NCBI RefSeq assembly: GCF_036924595.1
Contig: NZ_JAZHRV010000001.1
Coordinates: 496,001-560,000, forward strand
Length of the DNA stretch: 64,000 nucleotides
Source of the DNA: Bradyrhizobium algeriense
GTDB lineage: Bacteria > Pseudomonadota > Alphaproteobacteria > Rhizobiales > Xanthobacteraceae
Direction of reading: 5' to 3'
The position numbers were made by a program, and so were the translations under genes. The notes under the pieces are model-generated. The model ran no database searches. It worked only from the letters and a program-made list of their open reading frames with translations, and had not been told where the DNA came from. Shown piece by piece: positions 872 through 10,974 of this stretch (positions are counted from its first letter, which is position 1; each line of letters starts with the position of its first letter).

Positions 872-1198
872 ATGAGTGCGGAATCGGTTGTCTACTATCT
901 GAATCGCGTGCCTGAGAGCGATCCGAATGACCAAACCGAATGGCTTTTGACGGCACTGGGGCAATACACCGGCGCGGAGCTGCGCGAACTGCTCTATGTA
1001 GCGGAAGAACCGGGATTCTTTGAATTGATGCGCGGGCTGTTTGCGCTCTCGGACGAGAGCCGTGCCGTCCTGCAGCAATTTCTCGAAACCGGCCGCCCGC
1101 CGGCCATGAAGGCGGCGATCGACCCCAACGGGCGGTTGACGATTGACCACGTCAATGTCGAGCAGCGCGTAAAAATGCTTCCTGTGATCGCAAATTAG
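872..1198 (+). CDS. Conserved-looking hypothetical protein, 108 aa
   Basis: A soluble 108-residue protein I do not recognise. It is acidic and leucine/glutamate-rich (ELRELLYVAEEPGFFELMRG), probably all-helical, with no signal peptide or membrane segment. The ATG at 872 is preceded by a purine-rich GGGGGATGA, an acceptable ribosome-binding site. It sits 58 bases upstream of an XRE-type regulator on the same strand, so the two may be cotranscribed, but nothing in the sequence shows that they act together. Codon use matches the neighbours, which supports it being real. Confidence 0.65.
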   Translation: MSAESVVYYLNRVPESDPNDQTEWLLTALGQYTGAELRELLYVAEEPGFFELMRGLFALSDESRAVLQQFLETGRPPAMKAAIDPNGRLTIDHVNVEQRVKMLPVIAN

Positions 1199-1764: not shown

Positions 1765-2319
1765 TCAGCCCGTCGCGCGAATCGCAAGCCGCTCCGGCGG
1801 CCTGCTGCCGGGAATGAACTCGCCGATCCAGTCACGGCGCGTCGCTTCGATATGCCAGGACATTGCCTCGGCCGAATAGGGCGCCGGATCGGGAATGTCC
1901 TTGCGGATCTCCTTGCCGTCGAGCCAGCCGCAGCTGTGCGAATAGCGCGCCTTGCAGACGAGATGGATATCGCCGTGGTCCTGCAGCAGCACGTAGCCAT
2001 CAGCCGGAAAAAATGTACCGGCGAGCTCGATCGCACCAGGCAACTGACGCACCAACAGGAACGTGCTGGTGGATTGCGATTCCGATTCGGAAACCAATAC
2101 GCCGACCAGGCAGTGGATCGGCGCGATTACCTGCGGTGCAACCAGCGCGAGAGGCTCCGTGATCGGGCCGGCCGTCGCGATCGAAAGATATTCGCCCTCT
2201 GGTCCCCAACGGCAGGCGATCAGCCACTCGCGGCTACGACTACGAATCAAGGTCGGCTTGGCATAGTCTGAACGGGCAATATCTGCTGCCATGGCTATGA
2301 CTAAGGCTTTCGCGAGCAT
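1765..2319 (-). CDS. Hypothetical protein divergent from ycaO, 184 aa
   Basis: Function unknown. An upstream in-frame start exists at 2373, but the ATG at 2319 has a strong GGAGG site and gives 184 residues beginning MLAKALVIAMAADIA, a short hydrophobic start that might be a weak signal sequence. The body has no motif I recognise; it contains three spaced cysteines and a Trp-rich stretch (CGWLDG, MSWHIEATRRDW). It does not carry the features I would expect of TfuA, the usual YcaO partner. It is transcribed divergently from the YcaO gene with only 68 bases between the starts, so a shared promoter region is likely and a role in the same system is possible. Confidence 0.7.
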   Translation of the reverse strand: MLAKALVIAMAADIARSDYAKPTLIRSRSREWLIACRWGPEGEYLSIATAGPITEPLALVAPQVIAPIHCLVGVLVSESESQSTSTFLLVRQLPGAIELAGTFFPADGYVLLQDHGDIHLVCKARYSHSCGWLDGKEIRKDIPDPAPYSAEAMSWHIEATRRDWIGEFIPGSRPPERLAIRATG

Positions 2320-2387
2320 AAATTCCTCCAGGGCGAGGGCGGGCTGGCCTCTCGTCCGCAGCCTGCCCGTCAAGTCGTGAGGTCACC
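2320..2387. promoter_or_regulatory. Divergent promoter region between unknown gene and ycaO
   Basis: Only 68 bases separate the start codons of the 184-residue protein (minus strand) and ycaO (plus strand), so the promoters for both must overlap here or lie inside the opposing genes. I found no convincing -35/-10 pair or clear operator palindrome. The SARP-type regulator encoded downstream of ycaO is the obvious candidate to bind here, because SARPs usually bind heptameric direct repeats near -35, but I could not pick such repeats out. Confidence 0.3.
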
Positions 2388-3746
2388 GTGAGCGGTACCG
2401 AAAATTCGATACAGGAATTGTTTGCACGCGCGGCATCGTTGCTTCTCGGCAACGGAGTGGACGCCGCCGGCGATTACGATGCCGGACGTATCCTGCAGGC
2501 GCTGGAATATGCCTCGGAATCCAGCAACCGGATGGATTCGGAGGCCGCGAATCGTGCCGATTTGCTGATCGCTGCTTCCCGATTTGCGCGGGTGTTCGAA
2601 CTGGCCTCACCCGATGCACCCGGCCTGTTCAGCTTTGGTGCGCAATTCGATCCAGCGCTTGCTGATCCCTTGCATGACGGAAGCCCGATGGTCGGCGTTT
2701 CCGGCGTCGGTCTGACGTTGCGGGATGCATTTCAGGGCTGCGTCGGCGAGGGAATCGAGTATCTCTCTCAATTGCAGACCGGGCGCGACGTGTTGCTCAA
2801 ACCCGGCGTCGACGACTGGGCCGGAAAACTCGGTCCGAACGCGCTGGAGCTGGTCGCTGCCGTTTCGGAACGCTGCATACAACCAGAGCGGGCGCTTTCC
2901 TGGTGTCGTGCAACGCGGCTGACCGACGGTAGCGAAGTGTGGCTTCCCGCCGACATCTGCCTGCGGCGTCCGCCGGCGCAGCGCGACTTCGCGCCGCCAT
3001 TCCCCCTGAGCATCGGATCGGCCGCCGGTCCGTCACGGGATGCCGCAGCACTGCACGGCCTGCTGGAATTGATCGAGCGCGATGCGGCCAGCCTGTGGTG
3101 GCGGGGCGGTCAACTGGCCCGATCGATTCCGCCGCAGGAAGCCGGCATGGTGGTGGAAGGTCTGTTGCGGCAGCTCCGGCATGGCGCATCGGTGCAGCGC
3201 CGGACATGGCTGCTCGATATCACGACGGATATCGGCGTGCCCTGCGTCGCGGCCGTCTCGTGCCGGGCGGACGGTTCCGGTTTTGCTTTCGGCCTCGCCG
3301 CGCGGCCGGCGCTCGAGGCCGCGGTCCGCTCGGCAACGCTCGAAATGTGTCAGTTCGAACTGGCCGATGCTGTCGTCGCAACCAAACGCAGCGAGCGCGG
3401 CGATGACGCGCTCAACGCCCAGGATCGCACCCACCTGCGGCGCGCGGCGATCAATGCCGATCAGTGCAGACTGTTGCAGCCGGTCGCGGAGTACGCGGCT
3501 CATCTTCCCCTTCACGCAACTGAAGCGAGCGCGATATTTGAATTGATCGTACAGCGTTTGGAGAAACTGGGAATCGAGACATTTTGCCTTGATCTGACGC
3601 GCCAGCGCTTCGCCGTTCCGGTGGTCCGCGTGATTGCCCCAGGGCTGCAACTCGAGCCATCCGAAATCGTCACGGCCAGGCTGCAGGATACGATTGCGCG
3701 AACCGGTGGCGGCGCAACCTATACCGGAGGTGTTTCTTTGATATAG
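2388..3746 (+). CDS. YcaO-family ATP-dependent cyclodehydratase-like protein, 452 aa
   Basis: YcaO proteins use ATP to activate peptide-backbone amides, making azolines, thioamides or amidines in ribosomal peptides, or modify proteins such as S12. Hallmarks seen here are an upstream block GVGLTLRDAFQGCVGEGIEY (about 105-124), the nucleotide/Mg site LHGLLELIERDA (about 222-233, with E227, E230 and R231), and the EAAVRSATLEMCQFE helix (about 310-324). The C-terminus is GGGATYTGGVSLI and lacks the PxPxP tail of azoline-forming YcaOs, so the chemistry is uncertain. Start GTG with GAGG just upstream. No TfuA, E1-like or McbC-type dehydrogenase gene is adjacent. It lies 39 bases before the SARP regulator, so the two probably share a transcript. 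Confidence 0.88.
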   Translation: MSGTENSIQELFARAASLLLGNGVDAAGDYDAGRILQALEYASESSNRMDSEAANRADLLIAASRFARVFELASPDAPGLFSFGAQFDPALADPLHDGSPMVGVSGVGLTLRDAFQGCVGEGIEYLSQLQTGRDVLLKPGVDDWAGKLGPNALELVAAVSERCIQPERALSWCRATRLTDGSEVWLPADICLRRPPAQRDFAPPFPLSIGSAAGPSRDAAALHGLLELIERDAASLWWRGGQLARSIPPQEAGMVVEGLLRQLRHGASVQRRTWLLDITTDIGVPCVAAVSCRADGSGFAFGLAARPALEAAVRSATLEMCQFELADAVVATKRSERGDDALNAQDRTHLRRAAINADQCRLLQPVAEYAAHLPLHATEASAIFELIVQRLEKLGIETFCLDLTRQRFAVPVVRVIAPGLQLEPSEIVTARLQDTIARTGGGATYTGGVSLI

Positions 3747-3785
3747 ACTGGCTGGAACTAACCAACCGGTTCCGGAAACCCCTGC

Positions 3786-5894
3786 ATGCCGGCCAGCACA
3801 AACGCCATGACAGCGGACAAGGCCACGGCGGCGCCCGAAAGCGCGCCGCGCCTTTCGGTGTCGCTGGTTGGACGGCTCGGCGTGCGGTTCAACGGCCGGG
3901 CGGTCGAACTGCGAACCCGCAAGGCCGGCGCGGTCCTTAGTTACCTCGCGCTGTCGGAGATGAAGCAGGAGAGCCGCGAGCGGCTGGTCGGCCTGCTCTG
4001 GAGTCGTTCGGACGAAGAAAAGGCGCGCGCTTCGCTGCGCCAGGTCGTTCGCGAGCTGCGGTCGATGCTGGAGGAGGCCGGATATGACGGCTTCGTCGCG
4101 GAGCGGCTGATGATCGGCATCGACGTCGGACGAATCGAAGTCGATATCGAAAGTGTGATCCAGCTCGCCGAAAGCGGGCGCGTTCACCCGCTGCTGCTCG
4201 ATACGCCACAGCTCGACGGGCGGCTGCTCGAAGGAATGGACGATCTCGATCCGTCGTTCCGGGTCTGGGTACTGGCCAAGCGGCAGACCATCCATGAACG
4301 GCTGATGCGAAATCTCGATGAGGGTCTGACCTCCGCAAGCGTTCCCGCCGATTCCAAAAAAAGGATTGCAGCCGCGATCGTCAATCTCGACCCGACCCAT
4401 GAATATGCCTGCCGCTATCTGATGCGGGCGCATGCGGAAGAGGGCGACACGGCCGGTGCGTTGCGCATCTACAAGGCGCTGTGGGATCTGCTGGACCGCG
4501 ACTACGCGATGGAGCCGTCGTCGGCCACTGAAGAACTCGTCGCGAACATCAAGCTCGGCATTCTGGAGCGCGCGCCGGTCGATCGGGCCGCGTCGGCAGC
4601 GAATGACGAATTCGCTGTCAGGATGGTCAGGGGGACCGCTCTCCAGCCGGTGGCCCCGATGTCGCCATCGGTCAATGCATCGGCCAGGATGCGCCTGGTG
4701 CTGCTGCCCTTTGCGATGCATGGCGTCGACGAGGACCACAGCCATCTGGTGCAGGGGTTCTCCCAGCATCTCGCCGCCTGTCTCGTGCGCTTCCGCGAAT
4801 GGAGCGTGGTTGATCGTCCGCCCGCGGCCGTCGTGCTTCCCGCTTCGGGGACGGCGCCGCAATACTGCATCGAGACCACCGCCTACCAGGCGGGCGCCGA
4901 AATCAACATCGTGATGGTGTTGCGGGACGATACCTCCGGGATTTACGTCTGGAGCGAGAGCTTCCGGCTCGGCCTCGGCAACTGGTTTGAAACCCAGCAG
5001 CGCATCATCCGCCGCATCGCGACTTCCTTGAACGTGCAGTTGTCGACCGAGCGGCTGATGCGGCTGGCAGGCGAGCCCGACGTTTCACTCGATCTTCACG
5101 ACCGCTGGCTGCGCGGCCAGAATCTCATCACGAAGTTCGACAAGGAAAGCTGGCAGCGGGCGGTCGTGATCTTTCGCGACTCGATCCGGGAAAATCCTGC
5201 TTTCTCGCCGTTCTACAGCAGCCTTGTGCAGATGAACAACATCGAGCATTTCGTGCATCCCGGGGTCCTTCGCAATCCCGACAAGGCAAAGGCGACCCTT
5301 GAACTGGCGAAAATCGCCGTTGAACTCGATCCGGTCGATTCCAGGGCGCATCTCTGTTGCGGCTGGTCCTATACGTTTGCGTTGCGTGAGGCCGAGGCGG
5401 CGCCGCACATGGACCTCGCTTGCGAGCTGAACGACAACGATCCGTGGACGCTGCTGTCCAGCGCCCACTATTGCGCTTTCTGCGGCTCGATCGAACAAGC
5501 TCAGCTACGCGCCAGCCAATCGCTTGCCCTTTCGCTGGCGCCCTCACGCCTCGAATGGGGCTATCACTGCATCATTCACTTCCTGTGCGGCGACTATGCT
5601 GGCGCCATAGAGGCCTGCGACCGCGCCTACAATGTCATTCAGACGCTGCCCGCATGGCGTGCGGCCGCGCTGTTCGAACTGGGGCAGCCCGAGTTGGCGC
5701 GCGAGGAAGCGCAGCGATTTCTGAACGGCATTCGCTCGTTTTGGGTTGGGTCAGACGCGCCGACCGACGTGGCCATCACACGCTGGCTCCTGCAAGCGCA
5801 CCCCATCACCATCAGGGCGCGGTGGGAAACCCTGCGCCGCAGCTTGCGCGGCGCCGGGTTCCCGGTCGAAGGCATTGCGCCATTGTGCTGGTGA
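3786..5894 (+). CDS. SARP/BTAD-type transcriptional regulator with TPR-like C-terminus, 702 aa
   Basis: A large one-protein regulator. Residues about 22-105 form an OmpR-like winged-helix DNA-binding domain (LSVSLVGRLGVRFNGRAVEL, then RKAGAVLSYLAL). Residues about 110-262 are a bacterial transcriptional activator domain (DPTHEYACRYLMRAHAEEGD, with ALRIYKALWDLL). Residues about 300-400 resemble the TolB-N-like module found in CadC/cyclase-type proteins (RLVLLPFAMHGVDEDHSHLV). The remainder is helical TPR-like repeat (AVELDPVDSRAHLCCGWSYT, ACELNDNDPWTLLSSAHYC). It follows ycaO closely and is convergent with the peroxidase operon, suggesting local control of a biosynthetic cluster. SARP proteins are best known from antibiotic clusters. 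Confidence 0.85.
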   Translation: MPASTNAMTADKATAAPESAPRLSVSLVGRLGVRFNGRAVELRTRKAGAVLSYLALSEMKQESRERLVGLLWSRSDEEKARASLRQVVRELRSMLEEAGYDGFVAERLMIGIDVGRIEVDIESVIQLAESGRVHPLLLDTPQLDGRLLEGMDDLDPSFRVWVLAKRQTIHERLMRNLDEGLTSASVPADSKKRIAAAIVNLDPTHEYACRYLMRAHAEEGDTAGALRIYKALWDLLDRDYAMEPSSATEELVANIKLGILERAPVDRAASAANDEFAVRMVRGTALQPVAPMSPSVNASARMRLVLLPFAMHGVDEDHSHLVQGFSQHLAACLVRFREWSVVDRPPAAVVLPASGTAPQYCIETTAYQAGAEINIVMVLRDDTSGIYVWSESFRLGLGNWFETQQRIIRRIATSLNVQLSTERLMRLAGEPDVSLDLHDRWLRGQNLITKFDKESWQRAVVIFRDSIRENPAFSPFYSSLVQMNNIEHFVHPGVLRNPDKAKATLELAKIAVELDPVDSRAHLCCGWSYTFALREAEAAPHMDLACELNDNDPWTLLSSAHYCAFCGSIEQAQLRASQSLALSLAPSRLEWGYHCIIHFLCGDYAGAIEACDRAYNVIQTLPAWRAAALFELGQPELAREEAQRFLNGIRSFWVGSDAPTDVAITRWLLQAHPITIRARWETLRRSLRGAGFPVEGIAPLCW

Positions 5895-5912
5895 CAAGGC
5901 CGCTTGTGGACT

Positions 5913-6326
5913 TCAGGCGCAGGCGCTTATGGTGTAGTCGCCGATACGTTCGGCATGCACCCTGAACTTCTCGCTCTCCGGGATCACGGGATCCATACCG
6001 TTGAACAGGCGCTTGTAGAACGGCGGAAGCGGATAGGTGGCTCCGGGCTGGTTGAGCAGCGCCTCGGAATCCTCGATCATCACCTTGGGCGGCAACTTTA
6101 CCGTGATCGTGTCCTGTTCCTGCTTCACGAACGTGATGTGCTTGAAGCGATCCGGCACGGTGGCGAATACCTGGGCCTTGGCGAGCTGCTCCTTGAACTC
6201 GTCGATCGTCTCCGGCAGCGGATAGACGTTGTCGTCGTCGAGGTAGTTCGTGCCGGTCGCCCAGGTCTTCACCAATTTGCCCCAACGCTCATGGTTGGTC
6301 ACCTGTAGCCTTTCGATGCGCTGCAT
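5913..6326 (-). CDS. Hypothetical protein downstream of haem peroxidase, 137 aa
   Basis: No family recognised. The start at 6326 has a strong GGAGG nine bases upstream. The protein is soluble, with no signal peptide, and rich in charged residues and prolines. It begins MQRIERLQVTNHERWGKL and ends RIGDYTISACA, with a single cysteine two residues from the C-terminus. It lies 42 bases downstream of the peroxidase on the same strand, so the two are likely cotranscribed, and it converges on the SARP gene with 18 bases between stops. It could be a peroxidase partner, or, more speculatively, a substrate of the YcaO enzyme given the Thr/Ser/Cys-containing C-terminus. Confidence is for being a gene, not for function. 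Confidence 0.8.
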   Translation of the reverse strand: MQRIERLQVTNHERWGKLVKTWATGTNYLDDDNVYPLPETIDEFKEQLAKAQVFATVPDRFKHITFVKQEQDTITVKLPPKVMIEDSEALLNQPGATYPLPPFYKRLFNGMDPVIPESEKFRVHAERIGDYTISACA

Positions 6327-6368
6327 GGTCTTAGTCCTCCGGGTTGGGTGAGACGGAACAATTCCGCT

Positions 6369-8120
6369 TCACAAGAATGCAGGCACGGCCTGCTGTAGTT
6401 CGGCGATTTCGGTGGTGAACTTCACCAACTGCGCCATGCTTGAGATGTCGGGAATTTCCTGGAAAAAATTCGCCGGATAGTATTCGCGAGACAAATTGGC
6501 AAGCTGGCCTGCGAGCGTGTCGCCGCCGGATGAGCGCGGATCGCCTGCGAGCGCGCCGAAAATCACTTCCGATACGATGATCGAGCCGAGCGGTCCAAGA
6601 CGCTGGCCCTCCGCCTGCGGTTGCTGCATCGCTTCGAACAGGATGAAGAAGGGCAGTGGCGGATCGTTCGAAAGGGTTTCGATGTCTTCGGCCTTCAGCG
6701 CGCCATACGCCGGCGCGGCGACCAGCCAATCGCGGAGCTGGCTGACGCGATAGGCGCGGTCGGCAAGCAAGCGTGACATGGAGATGAACTGCGGTTTCCG
6801 GGTCGCGATCTCGGCAATCAGCGCGTCCACCGACCACATGCCGGCGATCCCGGCGCCGAGCAGATCACGGTAGAGCAGGCCAACCCGCTCGGTCTCGTCG
6901 AACGCCGGAAAGATCTGATCGTTGCCCAACCCGTCGCTGAGATACGGTCCGATGCGCCGGCTGAAGTTCGGCTTGGTTTCATTGATCTCGAAGAAGCGCG
7001 ACCACTGCACCATCCAGGTTTCATCGAGCGGCATGTTGACCGGATCGTTTGCAGAAGTCTTTTCAAGCGTGCTGTAGAGGTCCTGAATCGACAGATCATT
7101 GATGCAGTATTCGTGTCGCACCATGGCGTGACCGAAGCGAAACGCGCCGTGCGAGAACTCGAACGGAATTTCCCAGTCGCCGTTCGCAAGACCCTGGCTG
7201 GATTCATCAGGCCGATCGATGAAATGCGGAGCCGGTCCGCTATAGGCCGCATAGATCTCCGGGTGAATGACCCGCCGCATCAGATCGTTGCGAAGAATGT
7301 TGTGGTAGATCAGCGTAACGGCCTCGCGGGCGCACAGGAAGCGCTTATAGGCGGCGCCGAACCGGCCGTTCGGCCCGCTATTGCGTTCCTGCCGGCGTAT
7401 GAGATCGATCAGGGCGTTGTGCAGCAGCGCGAACAGCGCGGTCAGCTGCGACATCACGGCGTGATCGTCATTGCGCGGATCGGCGACCAGGGCTTCGGTG
7501 AGGGCAACCCGGACGCCTGCAATGCTGCGGTCGATCCCCGTCACATTCTCGGCCCGGGTCCGTGCGATGTCGCGAAACGGGCAGCCGGTCACGGGTTCGT
7601 TCTCTTTCCAGCGCATTCGCCCGAGCCGCAGCTTGGTGCGCCGGTCGTCACTCGGCGCGTCGAGCGCGTAAATATGCGGCGATCCGACAGGACCGCTTCC
7701 GAACAGGGTTTCCAGCCGAAGCGGCGCACGGCGTGCATTGGCGGTGCCGGCGCCAAGGCCCCCCGAAACTGAAAGCGGGATCGCCGAATGAACCAGATCG
7801 TGCGCCACGAATTGCAGCAGATAGGTGTAACCTGAGGGGATCAGCGGGTTTTCCCAGTGCTCCGCCGATCCACTGCGGTGGGGCGGCCAGTGTATTTCGG
7901 CATCCATCCGGCGCGACAGGCGATGCATCAGTGCCCGGAGTTTCGGCAGATGTTCAGGTGAAGTGAGCGGGTCGATCCCGAACGCGCGGAAGCGCTGCGA
8001 TGGGTTTGGAGTCCCAAGGAAGTGACGAAAACCGGGAGCTGCTGTTGCTCGAGCAGAGTCGCGCGTATTGAACTCGGAAGTTCGGAAAGAGGCTGCGTCA
8101 GCGACTGTCTGCAGAGCCAT
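6369..8120 (-). CDS. Animal-type (peroxidase-cyclooxygenase superfamily) haem peroxidase, 583 aa
   Basis: A haem enzyme of the animal peroxidase fold that oxidises substrates with hydrogen peroxide or may act as a dioxygenase. Visible marks: distal site LLQFVAHDLVHS with Q103 and H107; DPRNDDHAVMSQLTALFALLHN, the conserved DxRND...HN block; HNILRNDLMRRVIHPEIY; and proximal haem ligand H331 in AFRFGHAMVRHEYC. The ATG at 8120 is preceded by GAGAG; an in-frame ATG at 8210 has no ribosome-binding site. No signal peptide is evident, so it appears cytoplasmic or exported by another route. It leads an apparent two-gene operon with the 137-residue protein and stands beside ycaO and SARP genes. Substrate unknown. 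Confidence 0.85.
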   Translation of the reverse strand: MALQTVADAASFRTSEFNTRDSARATAAPGFRHFLGTPNPSQRFRAFGIDPLTSPEHLPKLRALMHRLSRRMDAEIHWPPHRSGSAEHWENPLIPSGYTYLLQFVAHDLVHSAIPLSVSGGLGAGTANARRAPLRLETLFGSGPVGSPHIYALDAPSDDRRTKLRLGRMRWKENEPVTGCPFRDIARTRAENVTGIDRSIAGVRVALTEALVADPRNDDHAVMSQLTALFALLHNALIDLIRRQERNSGPNGRFGAAYKRFLCAREAVTLIYHNILRNDLMRRVIHPEIYAAYSGPAPHFIDRPDESSQGLANGDWEIPFEFSHGAFRFGHAMVRHEYCINDLSIQDLYSTLEKTSANDPVNMPLDETWMVQWSRFFEINETKPNFSRRIGPYLSDGLGNDQIFPAFDETERVGLLYRDLLGAGIAGMWSVDALIAEIATRKPQFISMSRLLADRAYRVSQLRDWLVAAPAYGALKAEDIETLSNDPPLPFFILFEAMQQPQAEGQRLGPLGSIIVSEVIFGALAGDPRSSGGDTLAGQLANLSREYYPANFFQEIPDISSMAQLVKFTTEIAELQQAVPAFL

Positions 8121-8316: not shown

Positions 8317-10974
8317 GTGAAGCTTAAAGTGACGGCACCCTTGGCGCGCTATTGCGGCGCAATGATCGTGATGATGATCGTCGTAACAGGCGCGGTGCGA
8401 GCCGAGCCGGTTTTCTCGTTCGACGCCACGCCGGGCAAACTGTCGAAGACAGTCGTTCCGATCAACTATTCAATCGAGCTGAGACCTGACGCCGAGAGCC
8501 TCACGCTTCCCGGCGTCGAAGTGATCGACATCGAGGTGCGCGAACCGACAGCACGGCTGACGCTCAACGCCGTCAACACGACGTTTGCTTCCGTTACCGC
8601 CGACGATAGCCTCGAGCGCGCCGACGTCGCGCTCGATGCCGCGGCCGAGACGGCCACGTTCACTTTCGCGCAGCCGCTCGCAGCGGGCGCGCATCGGCTG
8701 CGGATCGAGTTTACGGCGCGGATCAACAAGTTCGATCGCGGTTTCTTCTTCGTCGACTATCCGACCGACAGCGGCGTGAAGCGGCTATTGACGAGCAAGC
8801 TCGAGCCGGCGGACGCGCGGCGGATATTTCCGTGCTGGGACGAGCCGGCGTTCAAGGCGAGCTTCAAGTTGACGGTCGTGATCCCGCGCCATTTGCTCGC
8901 CGTCGGCAACATGCCGATCACGAAAGAGGAGTCGCTGGAGGCGAACCTGAAGCAGGTCGCTTTCGCGGCTACGCCAAAAATGTCGACCTATCTGTTCGTG
9001 CTGACGGTAGGTGAACTGGAGCGCATCACGGCGGAAGCGGACGGCGTGACGATCGGCGTCGTCGCCACCACCGGCAAGGCTGCGCAAGGGCAGTTCGCGC
9101 TCGACAGTGCGGTGAAACTGCTCGCCTGGTTCAACGACTATTTCGGTGTCAAATATCCGCTGCCCAAGCTCGACCTGATCGCGGTGCCCGGCGGCTTTGG
9201 CGGCGCCATGGAGAACTGGGGCGGCATCACCTTCTTCGAGAGCCGGCTGCTGTTCGATCCCGCGACAAATCCGGACAGCGCGCGGCGCGGCATCTTTTCC
9301 ATCATCGCGCATGAGATGGCGCATCAATGGTTCGGTGATCTCGTCACCATGGCGTGGTGGGACAATCTCTGGCTCAACGAGGGCTTTGCGACCTGGATGG
9401 CGACGAAGGCTGCGGAGCAGTTTTATCCGCAATGGCAAAGCTGGCTGAACGGCTACGGGGCGAAGCAGTTCGCCATGGGGCTCGACGCCCGGCGCACCTC
9501 GCACCCGATCCAGCAGCCGATCGCCAACGAGAGCGAGGCCATGATCGCGTTCGACGCCATTACCTACAACAAAGGGCAGGCGCTGATCCGCATGCTGGAA
9601 AATTACCTCGGCGAAGCGGCGTTCCGCGACGGCATCCGCGCCTACATGTCCGCGCATGCCTATGGCAACACCACCACGGCCGATCTCTGGCGGGCGCTGG
9701 AGCGCGCGGGCCACAAGCCGGTGACCGATATCGCTGCGTCCTTTACCGAACAGGATGGTGTGCCGCTGATATCAGCCGAAACCGCCTGCAACGGCGATGC
9801 GCAGCGGCTGACATTGCGGCAGGGCCGTTTCGTGATCGCGCCGGCGCGGGCGGCTGCCTTGCCGCCGCGCAACTGGCAAATACCGGTTGCGGTCGGGCCG
9901 GTGGGCACGGCGCAATCGGCCGATGTCGTGCTGCTGCACGGCTCGACCGAAGTCCCGGCCGGATCCTGTGGCGAGGCGACCAAGGTCAATCTCGGCGACA
10001 TCGGTTACTACCGGGTCGAGTACGGGCCGGCGAGCATGGCCGCGCTGGCAAAGGCGCTGCCGCAGATGTCGCCGGCAGACCGCGTCAATTTCCTCGCCGA
10101 CGGCTGGGCGATGGTGCAGGCCGGCCGCGCCGAGCCGTCATCCTATCTCGGCCTGGTCGAGAATATCGGCGTCGATGACCGCCGCCCGGTGTGGGATCAG
10201 ATCATCACGGCATTCTCCGCGCTCAACCGTCTGTCGCGCGATCGGCCCGAGCGTCCGGCGCTGCAGCGTTACATCAGCGCCAGATTGCGCACCGTTTTCG
10301 ACCGGCTCGGCTGGGACGGCAGCGGCTCGGGCGACGACGACAACACCCTGCTGCGCGGCAGCCTGATCTGGACACTCGGCGAACTCGGCGACGAAGCGAT
10401 CATTGCGGAGGCGAAGCGGCGGTTCGCCGGATTCCTCAGCGATCCGCAATCGCTGCCGGGGGCCTTGCGCGATTCCGTTACCCATGTCGTCGGCATCACG
10501 GCGGATCGCGCGACCTACGACACGCTGCTGACGTTGGCGCGCAAGAGCACCGTCACCAATGAGCGACTGCGCTATTACTATGCGGCGGCCGCCGCGCGCG
10601 ATCCGGCGCTGGCGCATGCGACACTGGCGCTGACACTGACCGACGAAGTGCCGGGCACGATTCTCACCGGCCTGATCGGTTCTGTCGCTTCCTCCGGGGA
10701 GCAGCCTGATCTGGCCTGGGATTTTCTGCAGAAGAACTACGATGCCTTGTTCGCAAAGCAGGGACCGCAATTCCGCGACCAGTTCATTGCGAACTTCATG
10801 ACAAACTTCAGCGACGAGCGCCATGCCGCCGAACTCGCCGCCTTTGCGCCGGTGCAGGCGACGTCGGGCGGGCGGGCGATGGTGGGCCGGGCGCAGGAAG
10901 TGATCGCAATCTCTGCCGACCTCAAAGCCCGCGCGCTGCCGGCGGTCGATGCCTGGATCAAGGCGCGCAAATAA
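8317..10974 (+). CDS. Secreted M1-family zinc aminopeptidase, 885 aa
   Basis: An exopeptidase removing N-terminal residues from peptides. The N-terminus (residues 1-30, with MIVMMIVVTGAVRA followed by E) is a signal peptide, so it should act in the periplasm. The M1 exopeptidase motif GAMEN is at about 295-299 and the zinc site HEMAHQWFGD begins at H332, with H336 and the third ligand E355 (HEXXH-X18-E complete). A long ERAP-like helical C-terminal domain follows, with INNKG-equivalent AITYNKGQALIRMLE. The GTG start has AGGAG five bases upstream. It is divergent from the peroxidase gene with about 200 bases between the chosen starts. A link with the YcaO cluster is possible but unsupported. 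Confidence 0.94.
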   Translation: MKLKVTAPLARYCGAMIVMMIVVTGAVRAEPVFSFDATPGKLSKTVVPINYSIELRPDAESLTLPGVEVIDIEVREPTARLTLNAVNTTFASVTADDSLERADVALDAAAETATFTFAQPLAAGAHRLRIEFTARINKFDRGFFFVDYPTDSGVKRLLTSKLEPADARRIFPCWDEPAFKASFKLTVVIPRHLLAVGNMPITKEESLEANLKQVAFAATPKMSTYLFVLTVGELERITAEADGVTIGVVATTGKAAQGQFALDSAVKLLAWFNDYFGVKYPLPKLDLIAVPGGFGGAMENWGGITFFESRLLFDPATNPDSARRGIFSIIAHEMAHQWFGDLVTMAWWDNLWLNEGFATWMATKAAEQFYPQWQSWLNGYGAKQFAMGLDARRTSHPIQQPIANESEAMIAFDAITYNKGQALIRMLENYLGEAAFRDGIRAYMSAHAYGNTTTADLWRALERAGHKPVTDIAASFTEQDGVPLISAETACNGDAQRLTLRQGRFVIAPARAAALPPRNWQIPVAVGPVGTAQSADVVLLHGSTEVPAGSCGEATKVNLGDIGYYRVEYGPASMAALAKALPQMSPADRVNFLADGWAMVQAGRAEPSSYLGLVENIGVDDRRPVWDQIITAFSALNRLSRDRPERPALQRYISARLRTVFDRLGWDGSGSGDDDNTLLRGSLIWTLGELGDEAIIAEAKRRFAGFLSDPQSLPGALRDSVTHVVGITADRATYDTLLTLARKSTVTNERLRYYYAAAAARDPALAHATLALTLTDEVPGTILTGLIGSVASSGEQPDLAWDFLQKNYDALFAKQGPQFRDQFIANFMTNFSDERHAAELAAFAPVQATSGGRAMVGRAQEVIAISADLKARALPAVDAWIKARK

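What the first reader, a model, noticed from the sequence alone, without database searches (positions are those of the whole stretch)
1765..8120. YcaO enzyme, SARP regulator and haem peroxidase form an unfamiliar gene cluster
Within 6.4 kb there are an intact YcaO protein, a SARP/BTAD regulator 39 bases downstream of it, a convergent operon of an animal-type haem peroxidase plus a small unknown protein, and a divergent unknown protein. YcaO and SARP proteins are typical of peptide natural-product clusters, but none of the usual YcaO partners (TfuA, E1-like ocin-ThiF protein, FMN dehydrogenase) is here. The peroxidase could take the role of an oxidative tailoring enzyme. I know of no described pathway with this combination.
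Basis: partly seen in the sequence, partly recalled or inferred. Interest (0 to 1): 0.75.

Follow-up and report, generated by a model that had tools for sequence, protein, structure and literature searches.

The report
Peroxidase-linked YcaO peptide-maturation gene cluster
A set of neighbouring genes, kept together in many soil and water bacteria, looks like a machine that chemically changes the very tip of a small protein around one unvarying cysteine, and I found no description of the set or its product in the open papers searched.

Summary
Of 53 loci found with the small protein in a GTDB species collection, 53 have the BTAD ("SARP") regulator, 51 the peroxidase, 50 YcaO (the 3 misses are contig ends) and 43 the divergent gene; 26 of the 53 share none of six flanking genes. 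In 297 genomes of the order the small gene occurs in 22, YcaO in 23, both in 21.

The key part is the small "unknown" protein. It matches no Pfam or NCBIfam family. It ends R-[IVM]-x-[DE]-Y-x4-C-x-stop: Arg, Tyr and the penultimate Cys are 75 of 75 in a non-redundant set, while the residues beside the Cys each take 15 types. That is how the core of a modified-peptide precursor behaves. I read it as the substrate: YcaO cyclises the Cys to a thiazoline and the peroxidase oxidises the product. Linkage and tail are shown; the chemistry is inferred. TfuA and the ocin-ThiF partner are absent from the genome. Three loci lack the peroxidase, and three of 25 YcaO places lack the small gene. No release protease or exporter was recognised.

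The parts
1765..2319 (-). Divergent gene, 184 aa, all-beta predicted fold, no known family; accessory member of the cluster
   Evidence: Start ATG at 2319 with GGAGGA upstream; found in 43 of 53 loci (L102 only weakly); AlphaFold2 pLDDT 88, pTM 0.84, nine strands, no helix; 0 families for the window's protein in Pfam and NCBIfam; none at E<=0.01 among 36 members in Pfam
2388..3746 (+). YcaO enzyme, 452 aa, proposed to act on the C-terminal Cys of the small protein
   Evidence: PF02624 2.7e-52; family profile best among solved structures with LynD 143 bits, TruD 138, MusD 107, then MJ1094 87; invariant Gly/Glu/Arg positions in 26 members
3786..5894 (+). BTAD (SARP-like) regulator with TPR-type C-terminal part, 702 aa
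   Evidence: BTAD 3.1e-09; present in 53 of 53 loci
5913..6326 (-). Small protein, 137 aa: proposed precursor (about 126-residue leader + C-terminal core)
   Evidence: In all 53 loci by construction (it was the query); no Pfam/NCBIfam match at E<=0.01 for any of 59 members; AlphaFold2 pLDDT 89, last helix 117-133 followed by a short tail
5913..5948 (-). C-terminal signature RIGDYTISACA-stop (proposed core region)
   Evidence: Arg, Tyr, Cys 75 of 75; residues flanking Cys 15 types each; motif search
6369..8120 (-). Animal-type haem peroxidase, 583 aa from the likely start, upstream of the small gene on the same strand (42-base gap)
   Evidence: PF03098 weak in the window, 22 of 26 members match; profile hits lactoperoxidase 5e-06 and myeloperoxidase 1.2e-04; His137, Arg246, His361 (numbered in the 613-aa ORF) invariant in 26; start:

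Best explanation
The locus is a biosynthetic cluster for a ribosomally made, modified peptide or protein tail. The 137-aa protein encoded at 5913-6326 is the substrate: a folded leader ending in a long helix (predicted), then a short tail. SHOWN: the tail R-[IVM]-x-[DE]-Y-x4-C-x-stop is conserved with Arg, Tyr and Cys invariant, the residues beside the Cys are hypervariable, and the gene is co-inherited and near with YcaO, the BTAD regulator and nearly always the haem peroxidase. INFERRED: YcaO, whose closest solved relatives are azoline-forming cyclodehydratases, uses ATP to close the invariant Cys136 onto the carbonyl of the variable residue before it, giving a thiazoline. INFERRED more weakly: the peroxidase then oxidises the product (thiazoline to thiazole, or the invariant Tyr131). 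The BTAD protein switches the cluster on. The beta-rich divergent protein is an accessory of unknown role (binding, immunity or assembly). How the product is released is unknown. Probability that the small protein is the YcaO substrate: about 0.65. That the modification is a thiazoline at Cys136: about 0.4.
For: Adjacency and co-occurrence. Different flanks: 26 of the 53 loci share none of six flanking genes of the window at >50% identity within the fetched stretch. Co-divergence of YcaO, regulator, small protein and POX: pairwise-distance correlations 0.88-0.98 over 60 of 77 loci; 10 that lack one of the four and 7 partial or odd ones were left out. Tail. Within the 31 closest loci site -3 has 9 amino-acid changes over A/F/I/L/V/Y, while Cys, Ser(-4), Thr(-6), Tyr, Asp, Gly and Arg have none despite 1-9 codon changes each. 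YcaO similarity to LynD/TruD/MusD; all 26 members match the SagD model at E<=1e-3. Independent of the small-protein query: two loci found through YcaO, which tblastn and my profile scored as lacking the small gene, hold a diverged version with the same tail (L116, L117). Less certain last seven residues in the model (mean pLDDT 70).
Against: No product, no enzyme assay. I recognised no conserved protease or peptide exporter: the widest shared families besides the five genes, scanned in nine ORFs, were TctC receptors, a branched-chain-amino-acid ABC transporter, an amidohydrolase and a kinase domain, one without match (not exhaustive). RRE domains were not searched for. Only two residues vary strongly, whereas classical cores vary over longer stretches. 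One of the two peptide patterns that fetched the 53 loci covers part of the tail (up to Tyr-Thr, not the Cys), so the constancy of Arg and Tyr there is partly by construction. YcaO scores below the SagD cut-off (125.5 against 219) and lacks the C-terminal PxPxP end of azoline YcaOs (that hallmark is recalled). YcaO relatives without the small gene exist (L115, L118; L060 has YcaO and regulator). The peroxidase is absent at L103, L105 and L129 and lies apart from the small gene in L100 (4.2 kb). In G250 the YcaO beside the small gene is in pieces (L114) while a lone YcaO sits elsewhere. Six of 195 small-protein sequences lack the tail; five come from the source called 'src' and one is partial, so frameshifts are likely but not shown.
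Confidence: 0.6

Rival explanations
1. Carrier-arm reading: the small protein is not cut. Its penultimate Cys on a flexible arm carries sulfur or another group, as the DsrC/TusE proteins do (recalled), and YcaO and peroxidase act on that cargo or activate the arm.
For: Penultimate invariant Cys after a predicted folded domain; no protease or peptide exporter recognised among shared genes; the leader is conserved like a functional domain.
Against: None of 59 members matches any Pfam or NCBIfam family at E<=0.01; that DsrC/TusE models are in these libraries is recalled. The residues beside the Cys vary over 15 types each, unusual for a docking arm. YcaO enzymes are not known (recalled) to load carriers.
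Confidence: 0.15
2. Tyr-Cys reading: the peroxidase makes a Tyr131 radical that joins Tyr131 and Cys136 (or modifies Tyr131), and YcaO alters a backbone amide nearby (thioamide or amidine).
For: Tyr and Cys are the invariant pair at fixed spacing Y-x4-C in 75 of 75; peroxidase catalytic residues conserved.
Against: Three loci keep Tyr, Cys and YcaO but have no cluster peroxidase; no TfuA in the genome.
Confidence: 0.12
3. The small protein is an accessory subunit of the peroxidase (same strand, short gap), and YcaO modifies something else, such as a free small molecule or another protein.
For: In 49 of the 51 loci that have both, the two open frames lie within 300 bases (exceptions L099, 745 bases, and L100, 4188 bases); gap 42 bases in the window.
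Against: The small gene and YcaO persist together where the peroxidase is lost (L103, L105, L129); the hypervariable Cys-flanking residues look like a core rather than an interface.
Confidence: 0.08
4. Chance neighbourhood of unrelated genes in Bradyrhizobium.
For: The small gene is present in only part of the genus: 12 of 35 genomes besides the window's own.
Against: Same gene set with different flanks in Acetobacteraceae, Stella and several families of the window's own order.
Confidence: 0.01

Closest known systems
[quoted passage not shown] phazolicin of Rhizobium sp. Pop5)
   Same: YcaO of the SagD/LynD-like branch near a small precursor-like gene with a C-terminal Cys
   Different: No ocin-ThiF/E1 partner in the genome; no Cys/Ser/Thr-rich core, one invariant Cys only; a haem peroxidase in the cluster; BTAD regulator
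Cyanobactin cyclodehydratases LynD/TruD/MusD
   Same: Best sequence match of the YcaO family among solved structures
   Different: Those are 775-784-aa chains, matched here only in their C-terminal part; the window's YcaO is a single 452-aa protein
Thioamitides (YcaO-TfuA pair)
   Same: YcaO acting on a precursor tail
   Different: No TfuA in the genome
DsrC/TusE sulfur-carrier proteins (recalled)
   Same: Small folded protein with an invariant penultimate Cys on a flexible C-terminal arm
   Different: No Pfam/NCBIfam match; here the Cys neighbours are hypervariable
Animal haem peroxidases (lactoperoxidase, myeloperoxidase)
   Same: Catalytic Arg in D-P-R and proximal His in RFGH align; distal His by recalled motif
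   Different: Residues for covalent haem esters (recalled: Asp beside the distal His, Glu after the Arg) are not conserved

Membership tests
RiPP biosynthetic locus (generic) | Small precursor gene linked to a maturase | tested here: met
   YcaO found with the small gene in 50 of 53 loci; the other 3 are cut by contig ends
RiPP biosynthetic locus (generic) | Conserved leader, variable C-terminal core with fixed modifiable residue | tested here: inconclusive
   Cys 75 of 75, flanks 15 types each, but only two positions vary strongly
RiPP biosynthetic locus (generic) | Leader protease / exporter in the cluster | tested here: inconclusive
   None recognised among widely shared families in 31 loci, nine ORFs scanned; not exhaustive
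RiPP biosynthetic locus (generic) | RRE-type leader-binding domain (many, not all, classes) | not tested
   No RRE model was run; no fold search was available
RiPP biosynthetic locus (generic) | Modified peptide product | not testable with these tools
   Needs mass spectrometry
LAP/TOMM (SagD type) | YcaO above the TIGR03604 cut-off | tested here: not met
   125.5 bits, cut-off 219.25; all 26 members match at E<=1e-3
LAP/TOMM (SagD type) | E1-like/ocin-ThiF partner protein | tested here: not met
   TIGR03882: no match in the genome at E<=1e-3
LAP/TOMM (SagD type) | C-terminal PxPxP of YcaO (recalled hallmark) | tested here: not met
   The window's YcaO ends GGGATYTGGVSLI; no PxPxP end in the 26-row alignment
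LAP/TOMM (SagD type) | FMN-dependent dehydrogenase | not tested
   No model search was made; no such gene was recognised in the cluster
Thioamitide (YcaO-TfuA) | TfuA partner | tested here: not met
   PF07812: no match in the genome at E<=1e-3
Known precursor families in Pfam/NCBIfam (NHLP, Nif11 types among them, as recalled) | HMM match of the small protein | tested here: not met
   59 members: best E 0.019 in NCBIfam, 0.031 in Pfam, scattered unrelated models
DsrC/TusE | HMM match (presence of these models in the libraries recalled) | tested here: not met
DsrC/TusE | Penultimate Cys on C-terminal arm | tested here: met
Animal haem peroxidase (PF03098) | Pfam gathering score | tested here: not met
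   Window protein 23.2 bits, cut-off 25; 22 of 26 members match at E<=1e-3, best 2.5e-16
Animal haem peroxidase (PF03098) | Distal His, catalytic Arg, proximal His | tested here: met
   H137, R246, H361 invariant in 26; Arg and proximal His aligned to LPO/MPO; distal His assigned by recalled motif
SARP/BTAD regulators | BTAD domain and OmpR-type winged helix | tested here: inconclusive
   BTAD 37.8 bits (cut-off 22.1) met; Trans_reg_C 22.7 bits (cut-off 26.2) not met

The most novel reading that the evidence does not exclude
A new class of YcaO-modified peptides: a protein-sized (about 120-200 aa) folded leader presents a minimal core, Y-x4-C-x at the extreme C-terminus. A stand-alone YcaO without ocin-ThiF or TfuA partner cyclises the single Cys. 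An animal-type haem peroxidase takes the place of the flavin dehydrogenase as the oxidase, or oxidises the invariant Tyr. The variable residues on each side of the Cys make a family of tiny thiazole-containing products (42 different x-C-x tails in 75 non-redundant sequences) under a BTAD regulator in Alphaproteobacteria.
Probability: 0.42. Interest if true: 0.85.

Novelty: new variant of a known kind. Interest (0 to 1): 0.72.

Why it matters
If right, it adds a YcaO system that works without the two helper proteins tested for here, on a precursor that genome-mining tools could easily miss because it is protein-sized and has no Cys/Ser/Thr-rich core. It would make a haem peroxidase a maturation enzyme in a ribosomal peptide pathway. 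The x-C-x variation gives a ready natural library, and the tail motif is a simple search key: 53 loci in a GTDB species collection and 465 proteins at E<=0.001 were found here.

Tried and rejected
Chance neighbourhood: rejected. Thioamide pathway through TfuA: no TfuA in the genome. Classical LAP with E1/ocin-ThiF partner: absent. Known precursor or carrier families for the small protein: no match; nothing related among solved sequences. Divergent protein: no relatives in Pfam or PDB sequences. Plasmid-borne copies: none in PLSDB for the small protein. Taxonomic breadth: class 3 of 385 and phylum 6 of 398 genomes, own genome included in both; the 5 other phylum hits are of the same genus or order. 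Lead followed only in part: a branched-chain-amino-acid ABC transporter lies near the cluster in six loci; orthology and chance not tested.

Literature, in the held open-licence library: YcaO + heme peroxidase + RiPP (0 papers), YcaO + haem peroxidase, SARP + BTAD + Bradyrhizobium, heme peroxidase + RiPP + ribosomally synthesized + tailoring (on fungal halogenation), YcaO + SARP + precursor (on bottromycin regulation), YcaO + Bradyrhizobium (+ precursor peptide) (2 and 4), YcaO + peroxidase + biosynthetic gene cluster + precursor, YcaO + genome mining + cyclodehydratase + standalone. Passages only were seen of PMC8776678, PMC8120280, PMC7136475 and PMC7470986; PMC4603692 was searched for six terms (peroxidase, Bradyrhizobium, SARP among them) with no occurrence. 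The other papers were seen as listing and start of abstract. Nothing seen describes this set. Subscription papers are not held, so an earlier description elsewhere cannot be excluded.


Full report
WHAT IS THERE. The window lies in an 8.1-Mb genome that looks like Bradyrhizobium (its nearest named cluster relatives are Bradyrhizobium). Five genes lie between 1765 and 8120: a divergent gene (1765-2319, -), YcaO (2388-3746, +), a BTAD regulator (3786-5894, +), a small protein (5913-6326, -) and an animal-type haem peroxidase (6369-8120, -). The gaps are 68, 39, 18 and 42 bases. The peroxidase and small genes lie on one strand and converge with ycaO-regulator. The YcaO is the only one matched in the genome. 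The peroxidase start at 8120 is likely rather than certain.

IT IS A REAL UNIT. Searches covered 60 genomes (own included) with YcaO and with the small protein. Taking YcaO hits at E<1e-50, 15 genomes have YcaO and 14 of them have the small gene; the exception is G041. In 297 genomes of the order, 22 have the small gene (E<=1e-3) and 23 have YcaO (E<=1e-30), 21 shared. Of the 25 YcaO places, 20 lie within 4 kb of the small gene by coordinates. Two (L116, L117) lie beside peroxidase and regulator, with a diverged 188-196-aa small protein that tblastn and profile missed but that ends RICDYVISHC[GA]. Three lack it: L060 (YcaO + regulator), L115 and L118 (lone YcaO). In G317, counted as small gene without YcaO, the fetched locus has a weaker YcaO in place (L119). 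I fetched the loci of most but not all of these genomes; G115, G180, G229 and G251 were judged by coordinates alone.

A pattern scan of one genome per GTDB species gave 53 loci: Bradyrhizobium, Acetobacteraceae (Belnapia, Rhodovarius, Roseomonas), Stella, and MAGs named Hyphomicrobiales, Rhodospirillales and others. With HMM profiles, 53 of 53 have the regulator, 51 the peroxidase (absent in L103, L105), 50 YcaO (L063, L081 and L106 end at the contig edge) and 43 the divergent gene (one of them, L102, weak at 41 bits). 26 of the 53 share none of six flanking genes of the window at more than 50% identity in the fetched stretch, so the linkage is not just inherited flank. The order is mostly kept; L057, L100, L116, L117 and L121 are rearranged, and the divergent gene lies beyond the peroxidase in nine Acetobacteraceae and Rhodospirillales loci (L089-L096, L112). 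Distances of YcaO, regulator, small protein and peroxidase correlate at 0.88-0.98 over 60 of 77 loci; 10 lacking one of the four and 7 partial or odd loci were left out. Shared descent contributes to this.

THE SMALL PROTEIN IS THE KEY. None of 59 members matches Pfam or NCBIfam at E<=0.01. Its C-terminus is the most striking feature. Of 195 sequences (73 from the window and loci, two typed, and the 120 listed of 465 homologues), 189 end Y-x4-C-x. The six exceptions are five proteins of the source called 'src' and one partial. In a non-redundant set of 75 (tails <90% identical), Arg(-11), Tyr(-7) and Cys(-2) are 75 of 75, Gly(-9) and Thr(-6) 68 of 75, while positions -3 and -1 each take 15 residue types (3.47 and 3.14 bits), giving 42 different x-C-x tails. 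One of the two patterns covers the tail up to Tyr-Thr, so the constancy of Arg and Tyr in those loci is partly by construction; the Cys was in no pattern, and L116/L117 were found through YcaO. In the 31 loci closest to the window, position -3 shows 9 amino-acid changes on the regulator tree (among the eight most changed of 134 sites), inside a block where Arg, Gly, Asp, Tyr, Thr, Ser and Cys show none in spite of 1-9 codon changes each. The model of the protein (pLDDT 89, pTM 0.80) has a last helix at 117-133 and then a four-residue end that holds the Cys; its last seven residues average pLDDT 70. Frozen frame, one fixed reactive residue and free neighbours is how precursor cores look; a structural tail would not need free neighbours beside its only Cys.

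THE ENZYMES. A profile of 26 YcaO members matches LynD (143 bits), TruD (138) and MusD (107), then MJ1094 (87), 6ci7 (60) and the YcaO of 4q84 (25). All 26 match the SagD-type cyclodehydratase model at E<=1e-3; the window protein is below its cut-off. This points to azoline formation, and the only invariant azoline-competent residue in the tail is the Cys. The peroxidase family aligns with lactoperoxidase and myeloperoxidase over the catalytic-Arg and proximal-His parts. His137, Arg246 and His361 are invariant in 26, while the residues that make covalent haem esters (recalled) are not. TfuA and ocin-ThiF gave no match in the genome. The divergent protein is all-beta by prediction (pLDDT 88) with no relatives in Pfam or the PDB sequences.

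MECHANISM. Most likely: YcaO docks the folded leader itself (no binder was recognised, but RRE models were not run), phosphorylates the amide before Cys136 and closes a thiazoline. The peroxidase then oxidises the product in most lineages. G207 has no match to this peroxidase family at all (E<=1e-3), and L103/L105 have none at the locus (only relatives of 278-291 bits elsewhere in those genomes), while small protein and YcaO persist. So the peroxidase step looks accessory and the YcaO step the core. L114 is the awkward case: small gene and peroxidase intact, YcaO in pieces, with a lone YcaO elsewhere in that genome. Among the widely shared families besides the five genes, nine scanned ORFs were TctC receptors, parts of a branched-chain-amino-acid ABC transporter, an amidohydrolase, a kinase domain and one without match. 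No leader protease or peptide exporter was recognised, so either general proteases free the product or the modified protein is itself the product.

WHAT IS NOT SHOWN. No chemistry, no product, no expression. The fold comparison that could test RRE-like or DsrC-like resemblance was not available. The literature search covers an open-licence library only.

VERDICT. New variant of a known kind (YcaO-modified ribosomal peptides), with a fair chance of being a new class.

Noticed in passing
window 872-1198 (+): 108-aa gene of no Pfam family stays beside the cluster in six further loci (L069, L070, L071, L076, L078, L085) where the other flanking genes of the window are not found in the fetched stretch, so it may belong to the cluster in that clade.
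   Followed up: partly
L053, L057, L078, L103, L105, L110: Genes of a branched-chain-amino-acid type ABC transporter lie near the cluster in six loci, including the second cluster of one genome (L057); identified by Pfam in L110 only, orthology or coincidence not tested.
   Followed up: partly
L116, L117: Second clusters in two genomes have YcaO, peroxidase and regulator with a long (188-196 aa), strongly diverged small protein ending RICDYVISHC[GA], an extra Cys in the motif.
   Followed up: partly
L114 and L115 (genome G250): YcaO beside the small gene is in pieces while a lone YcaO (46% identical to the window's) lies elsewhere in the genome; possible relocation or replacement.
   Followed up: partly
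L103, L105, L129: Clusters without the peroxidase; in G207 (L129) no member of this peroxidase family was found in the whole genome at E<=1e-3.
   Followed up: yes
window 8317-10974 (+): M1-type aminopeptidase-like ORF (named by eye) next to the peroxidase is reduced to short N-terminal matches in several related loci (L046, L047, L050), as if decaying there.
   Followed up: no
L052 9925-11287: The YcaO of genome G031 matches in two overlapping frames, suggesting a frameshift, although the other four cluster genes are 95-99% identical to the window.
   Followed up: no
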